Source: Xanthostigma xanthostigma (taxonomy: Eukaryota; Arthropoda; Insecta; Raphidioptera; Raphidiidae). Taken from it: 64,000 bases of DNA. How positions within the stretch are numbered: position 1 is the stretch's first letter; the number at the start of each line of letters is the position of its first letter. A program made the position numbers and the translations under genes. This document shows, piece after piece, positions 22,330-55,383 of the stretch. Below the pieces are notes generated by a model, which saw nothing but the letters and a program-made list of their open reading frames with translations, was not told where the DNA came from and made no database searches. The stretch is from assembly GCA_963575645.1 (NCBI GenBank), contig OY754476.1:7068001-7132000 (forward strand). The letters are read 5' to 3'.

Positions 22330-23596
22330 AAAAAAAAAAAATAACGATGTGTAAACGTTTTTTGAAACTTTGAAAGCGTTTTTCTCAAAACTGTTTTTTC
22401 AAAGTCGGTGTGTACGATTTCTCAAAAACGGCTCAACCGATCGGTCTGAAATTTTAGCACAACCTTCTCAGTTATATTCTTCAGGTATTAATCGAAGTAA
22501 TAAGATTTTCGATAATCATTTCTGTTTTATTAAGCAATTTAACAAAAAAATTTGGATCGAAAATCGGAATTTTTTTCGTTTTGGAGCTGCCATTTTGTCA
22601 AAATCTAAATTTTATCTATTCCTTCAATTAATACCTAGATTTATCTGTACACTAATAGAATCTTCTAGTTTTTTTTTTAAATTCAGATAATCTAAACTGG
22701 AGATATCTTGCACACCGCCAGACACCTTTTTTTTGATCGACCGTCTACAGGAGCAGTGTAAATCAATATTTTTAAAAATAAAATATGCCGAAATAAAGTT
22801 AAAAGTTACCATTAAATTTACTAATGCTTCTTGTATTTGTCAAAGAAAACTCCTCTTCAGAAAAATATCGTAAAAAAACGTATAACCCTTCAAAGATGAA
22901 ACTGGTTGCGTTTTAATTAATTTTAGATGGTTTAATTTTCAAAAAAACAGTTTCTGCTAAAATGACAAAGTTGTTTTCTTTTTTTTTTTTTTTTGTAAAA
23001 TCAGATTATGTGGAAAAAGCACTTCCAGTAGTGCATTGGCTAGGTATACTTATAGACAGTACAAATCGACGGGGAAAATCTATTACCTGTAAAAAAATTT
23101 ACCCCAGTGTGTGAAGTAGAGATTAAAGGGATTCGTTCGAAGAATAAATAATAATCAGTTCTAAGCCGTCTGAGTTAGAAAAAATTAATTTGACGTCTGT
23201 GTTTTTTGTTCGACGAATTTTCAATATTCGTATCCCAAGAGATGAAAACGGGCGAGTGACGAGACCATTGATTTTTGGAAACGCTGACATTCTAAATTTT
23301 ACTCGAGTGAAGCCGAGCAGAACGGCTAATATATTATAAATACGAAATGTTTTCAACTTAAACAACTTCGTTTTGTGTCTACAAATGCAGACACACATTG
23401 AATCCTGTCTAACGTTACAGGATTTACGAATATTTAATATAACATTCGAGAATATACAACGTCTTCCATATGACATTTTCTAACGTGTCACGTTTACAAG
23501 TAGAAAATCATTCTGACATAATAAAAGACATTTAAAAATGCATACTTTACGGCTCAGCTTTTAAGAATTTTCTAAAAATGTAAATGCTTGTTCTTT
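22330..23596. other. Unassigned DNA, probably old repeats
   Basis: 22360-22700 contains 'ctcaaaaacggctcaaccgatcggtctgaaatt', a phrase style seen in decayed insect transposable elements. No ends can be defined. Confidence 0.35.
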
Positions 23597-23745
23597 AGTA
23601 AATAAAATTATCGACCATTTTTTCAGACAATATATTAACAAAAAATATAAATACATTAACGTTTCGATCCGGATTTGGACCTTCTTCAGAACTGATCTAA
23701 AAAATATAAAAAATAATTAATATTTAATTTCTAATTCGCTTTATA
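23597..23745 (-). mobile_element. Single arm of the Penelope/retrozyme-like palindrome
   Basis: Contains AAATAAAATTATCGACCA, CAATATATTAAC, the GTTTCGATCCGGATTTGGAC segment and CTTCTTCAGAACTGATC, then stops. On the minus strand this is CTGAAGAA-GGTCC-AAATCC-GGATC-GAAACGTTAA, the best-preserved copy of the motif discussed in the findings. Confidence 0.6.
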
Positions 23746-23751
23746 TAAAAG

Positions 23752-24623: not shown

Positions 24624-26726
24624 ATATGAATATATCGACAAGTTAGAAAAAGCAAACATTCGATTTATGACGATGGGTCTGGTGCAATAATGAGGTACGC
24701 CTGTTTAAATTTCAGATTATAGAACACGTTATAAAATCTGTTGTCGTTATGAAACAAACAATATATTATATTCTCCACGGAATAAAATAATGATTTCATA
24801 AATTCCAAATTAACGGAGGTGTCTAAATACTGCAGCTTTATCGTAAGGGTTATAGAATGACAAAGAGTCGTAGGGTGTTTTCCGATTCCCTGTGGAAAAG
24901 CGCAAGGATGTTAAATATGATAAAACAAAATAGGTATACACATAATATTATAAGCTAAGGTAATATTCATAACACCCATATATGCTGTAAACCAGGGTTT
25001 CCGAAACATTCTGCGGTCTAATTTCGAGATTTTGACCCTGTCTACTACCGAAGCAGAAAATCCCTAATTATACAAAAGAGAGAAAATTCCTAATTATACA
25101 AAAGAGAACAAAGGGCAGTATTAATTAAATTTTTTAGCTCTTTGCCAGTCTAATTACTGGCCAATAAAAAATGAACAACAATCGAAAAAACATACGTATG
25201 CATCTACAATAAGGGTAGTGCAGGATGCGAGATAGGGTAGACTGGGGAATAGCGGGGAAAGGGATCAATATTCATGGATAATATAGTCCAGTATGTGCAA
25301 ATATACAATAACCATTTGAAGAGCCGAGCGATTGAAGATCACATCAACGCATCATTCGCTTGACTGAAACTTTGAGCAACGTAGGTTACCTAAATATATC
25401 CGTGTTTGCAAAGATGTATCTACAATATTGCCATATTAAAATCTAATATACAGTGTGTACAACCTCACTCTAAATAATTTTTTTTCACGTTGGACAATAC
25501 GGAGACTCCTGCCTGCCATAATGGAATATTCGTGACGGCATATATCCTGGGACACTCGAAAGATCAAGGCCATTCTAACGGTACATTTGTCCAAATCGGT
25601 CTATTCGTTCAACTCTAGATCGTAACATACGGGCTTAGTCACATACATACACTGCTAAACACAATACGCTTGGTGTCGCAGTCGAGTAAAAAGGAGAACT
25701 CGCTGTTTCGAGTTTAATAAAAAATAAAGGTGTGAGCCTCGCCCACATAACCTTGCGGCAAAGTGAAATTTCTTTAGTTGTGAACTCGATTCGTTGATGT
25801 TATCCATTCATTTTGCGTTACCAAGGTTTCTCTTGTATCTCCCCGTTGTTGAATTAATTTCTCGAATATTATATTAAATCATTGCTCATTTAATATTCCA
25901 TCAATTTTATTGTGTATATAAAAAAAATCAAAAAACTTCTTTGTGATAAGATTCAATTTCATTGCATGAAAAATATACTTACAATGAAACTATTTTTAAG
26001 TAGAATAAAGTGCTCTTCCTCGTAATTTACCTATCTAGGCGAGTTGTTTCATTGCCACAACAATGCGCAGAACGAAATGCGCACCAGTTCACTGTATTTA
26101 TCTCTCTCGCTTGATCTAATTAGATACTGGATATGTCTGTTAAGTTTTTTTTAAGCAAATTATCATATTTATTTCAGTAAAGCTCAATAATTAAATTTTG
26201 TTTTCAGAGTATGTTTGAATATACTAATTCAACCTTGCACCAAAACGATTAACGTTTACACTCGGTATATATATTATGACTGCTCGCTATACAAATTTTA
26301 CAGTTTACAAGGCGCTTTGCTTGGGTAGTTCATAGCTTCCATGTAAGTCTAATATTTTATACTACCCCACCAGAAAGATATATTACACTCCAAAAACGGC
26401 TGTGGTGCACTTAAACCTACAGCTGCTAGTACGTGTCGATTTGAAATTCGAATACAGAGTTATCCATTTTATATTTTTATACAATAGAAAAAAAATATTT
26501 CAAAAATATTTCTCACTTTTAAATTAACTATTATGACAGGATAAAAACAATTAATGCTAACAGTAATACATAAAATAAATAACGAGACATCTGTCTCTCA
26601 GTTTTTTTTGTACAATAACAAGGCTGGATCGATTTTGATGAAGCCCAAATTTAAAGAATATACTACGATTAAAATTGATAATTCAAGAAATAATAAAAAA
26701 TTAATAACAAACAAATTTTATAATAC
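24624..26726. other. Unassigned DNA with traces of hAT ends
   Basis: CCAGGGTTTCCGAAACATTC at 24993-25012 resembles an hAT terminus without a partner. A 19-bp tandem duplication (CCTAATTATACAAAAGAGA) lies at about 25060-25107. No gene supported. Confidence 0.35.
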
Positions 26727-26802
26727 GTAGTTATTTTTTTATTTTTTGTCATTATATTGGTCTGAGAAAAATTGGTCGACAATTTTATTTATTTGAATAC
26801 TA
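26727..26802 (+). mobile_element. Fragment of the Penelope/retrozyme-like palindrome
   Basis: Reads TTTTTTGTCATTATATTGGT, TGAGAAAAATTGGTCGACAA and TTTTATTTATTTGAA, the outer right arm of the element complete at 39758-40150. Confidence 0.55.
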
Positions 26803-26859
26803 CGATTGAGTTAATGTAAAATTTCTGTCAAAACCCACGTTACCAAGACTTATGTTGGG

Positions 26860-34390: not shown

Positions 34391-34399
34391 ACATATTTG

Positions 34400-34468
34400 T
34401 ATAAATAAATAAAATTATCGACCAATTTTTCAGACAATATATTAATAAAATATATAAAAAATATATAA
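34400..34468. mobile_element. Fragment of the Penelope/retrozyme-like palindrome
   Basis: AAATAAATAAAATTATCGAC, CAATTTTTCAGACAATATAT and TAATAAAATATA match the outer arm; the rest is missing. It directly follows the SINE-based foldback. Confidence 0.55.
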
Positions 34469-35010
34469 GATTTGAATATTTGTATAAAACTATATGTCAA
34501 ACAATAAATTTAATTGATTAATTAATTTTCCGATAAAATAGTAAAATAAATCAAAGCCTATTTCTGGAACTATATAAACAATTTCAAAAAAAAATTGCAT
34601 CAAAACTCGTCAAATACTTTTTAAGTTAAATTTGTTAAAACACACAGTATATACAACCGAATTTTATAGCTTAATACAGATATGCAGAAGTCGACTCAAA
34701 CATTTCTCTACTCATAATTTATTTACATCGATTTCTAATTATTGAATGTAGGCAGGGAAGGTTCTTTAATATATTGTATATTGTACCTTATTTTGTTCAG
34801 AACCTCCCGAAGTATTAATTTCAATGGGAATTAATCATAGGCCATCGACTACTCGGTCATTAGATATACGCATATTAAAAAAAGACATAAATGTGGTGGA
34901 GGCGCAGGTACTAATCACGGTACCTTTACCATATATTTAAAAAATAATTAATTACTAGGTTCAGTGGTTTTTCAGTAAGTAAAAATTTTTTTAGAAACAT
35001 TTTCAAGTCG
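34469..35010. other. Unassigned AT-rich DNA
   Basis: No supported feature. Confidence 0.4.
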
Positions 35011-39744: not shown

Positions 39745-39757
39745 TCTTCTGAGAGTT

Positions 39758-40150
39758 CTTCAATAAATAAAATTATCGACCAATTTTTCAGACATATATA
39801 TTAACAAAAAATATAAAAATTAATACATTAACGTTTTGGTCTGGATTTGGACCTTCTCCAGAACTGATCTAAAAAATATAAAAACTAATTAATAATTAGT
39901 TTCTAATTGGTTTTTGAAAAAGAATCGTTTTAAATTTAAATTAAATACTTAAAGCAATTTTTTTCAAAAACCAATTAGAAACTAATTATTAATTAATTTT
40001 TATATTTTTTAGATCAGTTTTGAAGAAGGCCCAAATCCGAAACGTTAATGTATTAATTTTTATATTTTTTGTTAATATATTTATCTGAAAAATTGGTCGA
40101 TAATTTTATTTATTGAAGAGTTCTAATCAGACGTTATTCAAAGATTTGAA
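39758..40150. mobile_element. Palindromic Penelope/retrozyme-like element, long copy
   Basis: A 393-bp palindrome whose arms run CTTCAATAAATAAAATTATC, GACCAATTTTTCAGACA, ATATTAACAAAAAATATAAA, GTTTTGGTCTGGATTTGGAC, CTTCTCCAGAACTGATC and AAAAACTAATTAATAATTAG toward the centre, mirrored to 40148. It is flanked by identical 13-bp TCTTCTGAGAGTT at 39745-39757 and 40151-40163. The right arm (plus strand) has TTGAAGAAGGCCCAAATCC-GAAACG, a form of the hammerhead-like motif with part of stem II deleted. Long duplications point to reverse-transcription-based insertion. Confidence 0.65.
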
Positions 40151-40163
40151 TCTTCTGAGAGTT

Positions 40164-46838: not shown

Positions 46839-48792
46839 AAATATTCAACTGGTTATTATTTTTTAATTATTAAATATACTTCGCTAGCAAACCCTTGGTT
46901 ATTTAATCAATTGACGGTTTTAAATAACCACTTTTCTGCTAGCAATATTAGGAATATTCTCGACCCGTATCGTCATTATATAAGTTGATCCGTTATTCAT
47001 ACTATTTATATGTTATGTTATATTTAAATTAAAATAGAATAAAATAACCAATTATAACTGTTATCGTCTTTTTATTAACATAATATCATCGTTTGATGGA
47101 AATCCCTGTGTGAATATTACCTCTCTATTCAACAAATGGACCCAGCAATTAACCATCGATATCCGCCCACTGAGTTCTGCCATATTTGGTATTGAATCGT
47201 TTCTTTTTCTCCCGAAATAGTTATTGGATCAATATTCTAACTAAATTCTAACTAGACATTAAATGAAGTACTATGTAAAATTTAATATGCATTCTCTGAT
47301 AAAGTACCTATATATATTAAATTCTACTTCCTTTGTCAGCTAAACTACAATTTCAACATTGCAATTAGATAGTTACACAATTTTATACAACGCTTTAATA
47401 TCAATTTGAAATATTAAAACTAATTATTTCTTACCCAGAAAACAGCAAATTAAAACGAAATATGTACCTGCAACAAAAATGTCAATTAGTTTTTATTTGT
47501 TTTTGATATACATTTAATTGAAATTTCAAAAATAAAATTATTGTCCTTTGCATGCAAAAAACTATATTTAATATTTTTAAAACACTTTTAGGATTGTCTT
47601 TCGAAATTCGTGAAGGCGACGGAAAATCAAAACAAACGACAAACAGATCTCAAAAGCATCAATGAAATATGGAACTGAAATATAGTCTAGTAGGTACCTT
47701 CCATTTCTTGTTGAAGGTATATTTGAGTGGATTTTTAAAGTGGTAAAAAAGATAACAGATACAGAAAAAAATAGGTAACTTTAATTATTGTTTCTTATTG
47801 AAAAGTATTATTATTTTTCTTCTGCTGTAAATTTAAAAATTAGGGCCGCCAAAGTGTCGGAGCAATATGAATTCTGGCGCCACATGATGATATAAGAGGT
47901 TTTGACGTCAATTTTATTTACGGATTTGTTGACATAAGACGACATTAATTAAGACCGGAAGTGACGTCGGTATTCCATGATTGAACAGAATTTAAATACT
48001 AATAATTGTAAAAATTTTTGATTAACGTCTGATAATCTTCAATAAATAAAGTTAATAACAATTGTAACTCCCTATTTATCTGCATCAGTGCCAACTCACT
48101 CAGGTAACCTCTGTGTTTCGATACATAGAAAATCTTACGGTAGGATCACCGTCTAAAAGATACTTATTTATGAATAAAAAAGGCGAAACATCAACTTTTG
48201 TTAAAGCTACCCTAGAACTGAACCGATTTGTCGAGAGGTTCAACCCAATGGTTGCGTTTAAATAATAAATCGCACAAAAAATAAATCATAAATCTTAAAA
48301 CTACTATCAAATCGGTGTTCTGGAGTGACTACAAAAGATTCTATCGATCAGATATAAAACAATATTTGATAAAGAAAAAGATTACAAGCTGCACAAGATG
48401 TTAGCAACTATCTTTCAACATGTTCAAGTTTGACCATACAGTTTACAGAGCAAATATTATTCTGAATCAGAATCTCCCTCCCTTCATATGCGAATAACAT
48501 AACATCTTACTTTTTTTTATTTAACCGACACCAACAGTTTTTTAACCACATTTTTGAAACTTGCGTTTTAATATTTTACTTTTCCTGTAAACGATGGAAT
48601 GTTTTCATTGTCCATATTACACAAAGTAATTCTAAAATAGACGCAAATATTTAAAAAATTCAAGAATCACTCAACAAATTCGCGCATCACTGAAATAATC
48701 AATACCAGTGATCGCCCAGTGGTCGAAATTCGACCGTACTTTATTAAATTTGTAAGTTTGAACATTATTGAGGTTCTTTTGTCAATTTACCT
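46839..48792. other. Unassigned AT-rich DNA
   Basis: No gene supported. A fragment with ATTAACGTCTGATAATCTTC and AATAAATAAAG at 48022-48055 is the outermost end of the Penelope/retrozyme-like palindrome. Confidence 0.4.
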
Positions 48793-54937: not shown

Positions 54938-54951
54938 GTGATAGTCTTTAA

Positions 54952-55296
54952 ATTTTTTATTAACGTCTGAATAAAACTCTTCAAATAAATAAAATTGTAC
55001 CAATTTTTGCCAGACTATACCTATATTGTCAAAAATAACGTTTCGATCCGATTTTGGATCTTCTTCAGAAATAATCTAAAAAATATAAAAATTAATTAGT
55101 ATAGGTATATCAACTTATTTTATAAAAGAATGAAGTTATTATTATTATTATACTAATTAATTTTTATATTTGTTAGATTATTTCTGAAGAAGATCCAATT
55201 CCGGATCGATACGTCATCTTTTGTAATATTGATTTATAATTTTATTTTTGTCAATATAATATAGTCTGAAAAAAATTGGTCGACAATTTTATTTAT
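54952..55296. mobile_element. Palindromic Penelope/retrozyme-like element, long copy
   Basis: A 345-bp palindrome with the family arms (ACGTCTGAATAAAACTCTTC, AAATAAATAAAATTGTACC, AACGTTTCGATCCGATTTTG, ATCTTCTTCAGAAATAATC and the inverse). Fourteen identical bases, GTGATAGTCTTTAA, flank it at 54938-54951 and 55297-55310. On the plus strand the right arm has CTGAAGAAGATCCAATTCCG then GATCGATACG, a mutated motif. It is a second independent insertion with a long duplication. Confidence 0.65.
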
Positions 55297-55383
55297 GTGA
55301 TAGTCTTTAATTTGTTAAGACAACTGTGCAACACTGATTTTAAACTGAAACTGTTATACAGTCAATAACATATTTATGAGTTA

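What the first reader, a model, noticed from the sequence alone, without database searches (positions are those of the whole stretch)
39745..40163. Palindromic element with a perfect 13-bp target duplication
Seen: a 393-bp inverted repeat flanked by identical TCTTCTGAGAGTT. Foldback and MITE DNA transposons usually make 2-9 bp duplications; 10-14 bp fits retrotransposition by nicked-target priming. Together with the copies at 1577-1786 (10 bp) and 54938-55310 (14 bp) it suggests a palindromic family that inserts like a Penelope-type or other nick-primed retroelement. I know of no described family with this structure, but I cannot search.
Basis: partly seen in the sequence, partly recalled or inferred. 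Interest (0 to 1): 0.75.

Follow-up and report, generated by a model that had tools for sequence, protein, structure and literature searches.

The report
Two-ended Penelope retroelement insertion scars
The palindrome is the footprint of a Penelope-type retroelement that appears to copy its RNA into both ends of a 13-base staggered cut, leaving two short copies back to back; the element type is known, but the many such scars here make its unsolved insertion mechanism readable.

Summary
In detail: a 393-bp palindromic insert (39758-40150) lies between perfect 13-bp duplications, and one end carries a 32-nt extension ("tail") outside the palindrome. It does not look like a palindromic family that copies itself. 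It is an insertion product of a Penelope-like element (PLE) of this 623-Mb eukaryote genome. A long copy (L110) has an 835-codon ORF with RT and GIY-YIG matches, pseudo-LTRs equal to the palindrome's arms, and an ORF whose first codons are the tail. Two sampled insertions carry PLE endonuclease pieces, and one locus is a 4.85-kb head-to-head PLE dimer. Duplications cluster on 13 bp and the target is dyad-symmetric (AA before one nick, TT after the other). Hinges mostly differ between copies; 21 of 31 resolved unselected copies have an unpaired centre. In 21 of 21 insertions found without a condition on the far end, that end lacks the tail. Best reading: an endonuclease dimer makes a 13-nt staggered break, both 3' ends prime reverse transcription of PLE RNA, one at the tail site and one about 32-34 nt upstream, and the cDNAs are joined. 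Inverted pLTRs, the one-sided tail and in-vitro extension of both strands are published for PLEs: a new member of a known kind. The two-ended mechanism is inferred.

The parts
39745..39757 (+). left target-site duplication TCTTCTGAGAGTT
39758..39940 (-). tail-less inverted PLE 3'-end copy (antisense pLTR), starting at the inferred RT start site 2; inner limit approximate
   Evidence: starts CTTCAATAAATAAAATTATCGACC
39941..40118 (+). sense PLE 3'-end copy (pLTR), head-to-head with the left one; inner limit approximate
40119..40150 (+). one-sided tail; same sequence type as the first codons of the PLE ORF (SDVNQRFE in L110)
40151..40163 (+). right target-site duplication TCTTCTGAGAGTT
54938..55310 (-). 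second-subfamily two-ended insertion, tail at the low-coordinate end, 14-bp duplication GTGATAGTCTTTAA
1577..1786 (-). two-ended insertion, tail at the low-coordinate end, 10-bp duplication
34393..34488 (+). short insertion: left copy of about 60 bp joined to what reads as the last 9 nt of the tail; exact 13-bp duplication ATATTTGTATAAA
   Evidence: join read by eye
26660..26807 (-). single inverted end with an 11-bp duplication ATACTACGATT; far end not recognisable as tail
48004..48067 (-). 5'-truncated insertion of about 48 bp (tail plus a few bases of arm); 8-bp duplication AATTGTAA
28120..28249 (-). tail plus about 107 bp of arm, no inverted partner seen, no duplication found
23592..23750 (-). 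single arm of about 158 bp, no tail seen, no accepted duplication

Best explanation
The element is an insertion product of a Penelope-like element (RT plus C-terminal GIY-YIG endonuclease) living in this genome. Inferred mechanism: an endonuclease dimer cuts both strands at a dyad-symmetric AT-rich site 13 nt apart, leaving two 3' overhangs. Each 3' end primes reverse transcription of PLE RNA: one at start site 1, just inside the ORF after the pLTR (this end keeps the tail), the other at start site 2 about 32-34 nt upstream (no tail). Both cDNAs usually stop early; their 3' ends join through short self-complementary sequence or with filler, and gap repair duplicates the 13 bp. The result is two truncated PLE 3' ends head-to-head, that is, a palindrome when the truncations are similar. 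Shown: PLE identity of arms and tail, duplication length, target symmetry, one-sided tail, mostly different hinges. Inferred: order of cuts, use of two primers, manner of joining.
For: PLE identity: L110 is pLTR - 835-codon ORF - pLTR+tail, pLTRs about 95% like the arm consensus; the frame begins SDVNQRFE, the tail translated; RVT_1 7e-11 (42.7 bits, cut-off 29.6) and GIY-YIG 3.4e-4 (21.3 bits, cut-off 22.6) on domain-sized pieces. L061 and L064 hold PLE endonuclease pieces between the two ends; the L064 piece has 2723 first-look candidates in the genome, all 150 scored ones match, several as close divergent pairs. C9 is a 4.85-kb head-to-head palindrome, arms 99.9% alike, between 13-bp duplications read by eye. 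Duplication is 13 bp in 14 of 29 (tail-anchored) and 15 of 26 (best-like) accepted copies. Target: A at -3 in 23 of 29, mirrored by T at +15 in 22 of 29, counted from the duplication start; 16 and 17 of 25 in the other set. Orientation: of 27 neighbouring outer-arm words within 1.5 kb among the first 100 places, 22 are divergent, 4 convergent, 1 tandem. One tail only: 0 of 21 insertions found without a condition on the far end have a second tail, while about 38% of outer arms carry one (13,688 arms; 4019 and 4227 with either tail half; 78 of 100 listed with one half hold the other, counted by eye), so independent choice would give 0.62^21, about 4e-5. The two arms of one insertion are closer to each other than to arms of other insertions, 0.062 against 0.080, 0 of 5000 permutations as low. 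Published: Poseidon protein PAc cleaves and extends both strands, and its tail lies between two RT start sites (PMC11167929, section 3 read whole).
Against: By alignment 10 of 31 resolved copies pair through the centre, 8 of these 10 with a clear dyad centre, and the C9 arms stop within about 10 nt of each other (by eye): too symmetric for independent truncations, so snap-back copying probably adds to some insertions. The arm lengths show a weak positive correlation, Spearman 0.33, p 0.065, n 32. 36 of 780 hinge pairs, touching 25 of 40 copies, are as alike as arms are, so a minority may share a hinge. 21 of 50 tail-anchored loci have no duplication of score >=10 next to a tail-less end, and 14 of 40 best-like ones score below 10. 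PAc in vitro showed no difference in start site between strands. Two divergent pairs with a tail at both ends were seen on C1 (L131, L132/L133), neither with a direct duplication. In 22 divergent pairs, 11 had one intact tail half, 11 none and 0 two; alone this is not significant. One search required a tail-less far end and one search's start positions were limited to 0-12 by the search, so one-sidedness rests; one of those 21 (L123) is doubtful. No empty site was found. No RNA or protein data.
Confidence: 0.7

Rival explanations
1. Self-priming: one cDNA is primed at the target, folds back at its 3' end and copies itself, giving the inverted arm (the reading offered for rotifer Penelope inverted repeats).
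For: 10 of 31 copies pair through the centre; the C9 palindrome is 99.9% symmetric over 4.85 kb; PMC3846280 argues for self-priming on an antisense template (passages).
Against: Snap-back of a tailed cDNA would be expected to copy the tail too, yet the far end lacks it in 21 of 21. 21 of 31 copies have an unpaired centre, from unequal arms or inserted sequence.
Confidence: 0.18
2. A SINE-like palindromic family: hairpin RNA transcribed from existing palindromes is retrotransposed whole by PLE proteins in trans.
For: Thousands of short copies; arms close to a common consensus, mean divergence 4.4%; 36 of 780 hinge pairs are as alike as arms.
Against: No identical hinges, median hinge distance 0.40 against 0.125 for an arm stretch; consensus arms show no left-right substitution, only two single-base indels in A-runs; resolved unselected copies run from 50 to 1343 bp.
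Confidence: 0.08
3. A MITE or Foldback-type DNA transposon with long inverted repeats moved by a transposase.
For: Inverted repeats, a nearly fixed duplication length and a dyad-symmetric target.
Against: Ends are not symmetric (tail on one side); 50-bp insertions with 13-bp duplications (L059, L117); arms are the pLTR of an RT-encoding element.
Confidence: 0.02
4. Two independent PLE insertions next to each other, or later DNA rearrangement.
For: L131 is a palindrome that includes its flanks; L075/L076 hold two neighbouring insertions.
Against: One duplication flanks the whole pair in 29 of 50 loci, 0 of 150 controls; 22 of 27 neighbouring pairs are divergent.
Confidence: 0.02

Closest known systems
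Penelope elements of the rotifer Adineta vaga (PMC3846280, passages read)
   Same: GIY-YIG PLE; pLTRs of 193-218 bp; in one element an inverted pLTR 37 bp shorter than the direct ones; 31-bp tail on one of the inverted pLTRs; 8-10-bp duplications where present; palindromes at inverted junctions
   Different: Few copies there; here thousands of mostly ORF-less insertions, duplication clustered on 13 bp, dyad target measured; the authors favoured self-priming
Poseidon PAc of Anolis carolinensis (PMC11167929, section 3 read whole)
   Same: Tail equals the stretch between two internal RT start sites near the ORF start; protein cleaves and extends both strands; AT-rich ATT target; predicted dimer
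   Different: In vitro, no strand difference in start site; insertion joining not worked out; here the two ends of a clear insertion use different start points
Penelope of Drosophila virilis (named; structure recalled)
   Same: PLE with inverted or tandem pLTRs and optional tail
   Different: Sequence not compared here
LINE-1 twin priming (recalled)
   Same: Second target 3' end primes on the RNA and yields an inverted segment
   Different: There the inverted segment comes from further 5' in the RNA; here both cDNAs start at nearly the same 3' point

Membership tests
Penelope-like element (autonomous partner) | telomerase-like reverse transcriptase | tested here: met
   RVT_1 7e-11 on a 201-aa piece; the whole ORF gave no RT hit in Pfam and only weak retron and group II intron RT hits in the PDB, E 0.1-0.25. 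RT shown; its telomerase-like nature not tested
Penelope-like element (autonomous partner) | C-terminal GIY-YIG endonuclease in the same ORF | tested here: met
   3.4e-4, 21.3 bits, just under Pfam's 22.6 cut-off; YIGQTKRALKTRIKEH read by eye; the L064 piece alone gave no Pfam or PDB hit
Penelope-like element (autonomous partner) | pLTRs from tandem or partial-tandem units, inverted pLTR, one-sided tail | tested here: met
   L110: upstream partial unit 99% equal to the 3' end, inverted end of about 39 bp, tail at the outer 3' end only
Penelope-like element (autonomous partner) | hammerhead ribozyme in the pLTR | tested here: inconclusive
   No hammerhead match in Rfam for six insertions or L110; a CTGAAGA-stem-GAAAC stretch is visible and its stem is in the predicted fold, motif recalled
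Penelope/Poseidon clade | phylogenetic position | not tested
   no tree made
MITE / Foldback DNA transposon | symmetric terminal inverted repeats at both ends | tested here: not met
   tail at one end only in 21 of 21
SINE | unit copied whole from its own transcript (shared internal structure) | tested here: not met
   31 resolved unselected copies of 50-1343 bp with different centres; hinge distances mostly far above arm distances; a minority of shared hinges is not excluded

The most novel reading that the evidence does not exclude
PLEs integrate by two-ended target-primed reverse transcription: a dimeric GIY-YIG/RT complex makes a symmetric double cut with 13-nt 3' overhangs and primes a cDNA on each, with a division of labour between two RNA start sites, so that an insertion normally has exactly one tailed and one tail-less end. 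Inverted pLTRs of PLEs are then the normal product, not an accident.
Probability: 0.55. Interest if true: 0.78.

Novelty: new member of a known kind. Interest (0 to 1): 0.6.

Why it matters
[quoted passage not shown] the in-vitro study says further steps are yet to be validated. This genome holds 17,265 tail words with up to 2 mismatches and 13,688 exact outer-arm words, a natural record of junctions. It gives testable numbers: 13-nt stagger, AA/TT dyad target, one start site per end. It also warns that such scars can be misfiled as MITEs or palindromic families in repeat annotation.

Tried and rejected
DNA-transposon, SINE-like and two-insertion readings were tested and judged unlikely (see rivals). 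Rfam on six insertions gave nine matches, all microRNA families below their gathering scores, as long hairpins may. Whole-ORF Pfam and PDB searches were blank or weak; domain-sized pieces worked. A family search for GIY-YIG (PF01541) in the genome did not complete; another accession is not in the library. The joined flanks of the focal insert found no empty site, only its own two flanks and six weak partial matches. Seven of 39 loci with a duplication candidate were dropped by eye from the arm-length comparison because the repeat seemed internal or low-complexity, and the bounds of four others (L057, L062, L064, L070) were set by hand; one dropped locus, L065, later resolved with other bounds. 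L059 and L077 were added by hand to the 29 to make the 31; L026 was dropped. The host species was not identified. PMC8557442 is not held.

Full report
Observation. The focal insert is as described: 13-bp duplication TCTTCTGAGAGTT at 39745-39757 and 40151-40163, with a 393-bp inverted repeat between. One thing was missed: the palindrome ends at 40118, and 40119-40150 is present at one end only. The other copies named are real, and the window holds five more fragments.

Copies in the genome. The window lies in a 623-Mb eukaryote assembly of 28 contigs. A DNA search gave 2688 first-look candidates, 40 of them scored; I fetched 40 loci from its listing with flanks, the focal one included. They share a left end near TTCAATAAATAAAATTATCGACC and, in most, a right end ...TTTATTGAAGAGTTCTAATCAGACGTTAATCAAAGATTTGAA, that is, arms plus a one-sided tail. 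The tail word with up to 2 mismatches occurs 17,265 times, 0 in the reversed-pattern control.

Sample not chosen by structure. Thirty tail places in chromosome order came and the next twenty of the listed places were fetched, 50 in all, from C1 and with an exact tail word. Duplications were sought without any condition on the far end: score >=13 in 21 of 50, against 3 of 200 with a 3' flank swapped from another locus. With a tail-less inverted end required next to the duplication: score >=10 in 29 of 50 against 0 of 150. Accepted lengths are 10-18 with 13 in 14 of 29; in the best-like set 26 of 40 reach 10 (5 of 200 controls) and 15 of 26 are 13 bp. Interiors differ greatly among 31 resolved copies (the 29 plus L059 and L077, added by hand): 50 to 1343 bp; 10 of 31 pair through the centre by alignment, 8 of these with a clear dyad centre; 21 of 31 have an unpaired centre of 25-990 bp, from unequal arms, PLE coding pieces or foreign sequence.

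Link to Penelope. L061 (134 bp) and L064 (1343 bp) hold pieces of a GIY-YIG endonuclease of Penelope type (first recognised by eye from recall). Searching the genome with the L064 piece gave 2723 first-look candidates, 150 scored, all 150 matching, several as divergent pairs, with open frames up to 1249 aa. L110 is a long copy: pLTR, 835-codon frame, pLTR and tail; upstream a partial tandem unit and an inverted end of about 39 bp; duplication TAATAATGGTATAC read by eye. Its RT piece matches RVT_1 at 7e-11 and its C-terminal piece GIY-YIG at 3.4e-4, the latter slightly below Pfam's cut-off. The frame starts SDVNQRFE, the tail in translation, so the tail is the beginning of the next unit in a tandem transcript (inference). 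On C9, two 728-codon frames stand head-to-head in a 4.85-kb palindrome with arms 99.9% identical. The arms of the focal palindrome are therefore the pLTR of this PLE.

Two ends. Of 27 neighbouring outer-arm words within 1.5 kb among the first 100 places, 22 are divergent, 4 convergent, 1 tandem. Among those 22 divergent pairs, 11 have one intact tail half, 11 none, and 0 two, which alone would not be significant. In the 21 insertions, one of them doubtful (L123), none has a tail at the far end. About 38% of outer arms carry a tail, a capture-recapture estimate (78 of the 100 listed matches also hold the exact word, counted by eye). Tail choice at the two ends is thus not independent. Tail-less ends start within 0-7 nt of one point in 29 copies, in a search that allowed 0-12, as expected from a defined RT start site.

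Target. Counted from the duplication start, A stands at -3 in 23 of 29 and at -2 in 17 of 29, T at +14 in 17 of 29 and at +15 in 22 of 29, against about 34% background; binomial tails 8e-7 and 4e-6 for the outer pair, not corrected for the 22 positions looked at. In 25 other insertions the counts are 16 (-3), 17 (-2), 17 (+14) and 17 (+15) of 25. The dyad with 13-bp spacing points to symmetric cleavage by a dimer and lies outside the duplication itself. Because each 3' end that carries the duplicated 13 nt must prime the cDNA next to it, the break should have 3' overhangs (inference).

Same template, different hinges. For the 40 best-like copies, the two arms of one insertion differ by 6.2% on average, arms of different insertions by 8.0%, 0 of 5000 permutations as low; both cDNAs come from the same or closely related transcripts. 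Consensus arms show no left-right substitution, only two one-base indels in A-runs. No two hinges are identical; the median hinge distance is 0.40 against 0.125 for an arm stretch of similar size, and 744 of 780 pairs exceed the 90th percentile of the arm. The other 36 pairs touch 25 of 40 copies, so some copies may share a hinge, by copying or by a preferred junction. Most palindromes were thus made afresh rather than copied from a palindromic master.

Mechanism. The data fit target-primed reverse transcription from both sides of a staggered break, with one cDNA begun at the tail site and one upstream of it. This agrees with Poseidon PAc in vitro, which cleaves and extends both strands and whose tail lies between two RT start sites (PMC11167929, section 3), except that no strand difference was seen there. 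Some symmetric cases are centred on self-complementary stretches such as GATCCGGATC (L113) or GTCGAC (L053), which fits annealing of two cDNA ends; the C9 case, with truncations within about 10 nt, needs snap-back or another route as well. I give two-ended priming 0.7 and self-priming alone 0.18.

Known and new. Inverted pLTRs with a one-sided tail and short duplications are published for PLEs (PMC3846280, passages), where self-priming was proposed. In six answered literature searches (open-licence PubMed Central papers only) no listed title or abstract beginning pointed to a fixed 13-bp duplication, a dyad target or one-tail-per-insertion statistics for PLEs; I looked inside three papers only (PMC3846280 and PMC8576890 passages, PMC11167929 passages and section 3). 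Subscription papers, the older Penelope ones among them, were not searched. The element is a new member of a known kind; the mechanism evidence is the interesting part.

Noticed in passing
L131 (C1:6260460-6261160): Palindrome with tails at both ends whose inverted repeat continues into the flanking DNA and whose centre is other sequence; no direct duplication seen. Looks like a DNA-level palindromic duplication.
   Followed up: partly
L050 and L070, centres: Other sequence, itself palindromic, sits between the two PLE ends inside one duplication: captured RNA or a nested insertion.
   Followed up: no
L110:3389-3559: pLTR holds CTGAAGA-stem-GAAAC, resembling a hammerhead ribozyme core (motif recalled); Rfam does not report it.
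   Followed up: partly
window 34393-34488: About 60 bp of tail-less copy is joined to what reads as the last 9 nt of the tail, within a perfect 13-bp duplication: the tailed cDNA may be as short as 9 nt.
   Followed up: partly
C9:15658586-15665855 (L105, L109, L106): 4.85-kb palindrome with arms 99.9% identical, a sign of recent PLE activity.
   Followed up: partly
L074, L066, window 54938-55310: A second pLTR subfamily (AAATAAATAAAATTGTCGACC; tail with CTATTCAGACG or similar) makes the same kind of insertion.
   Followed up: partly
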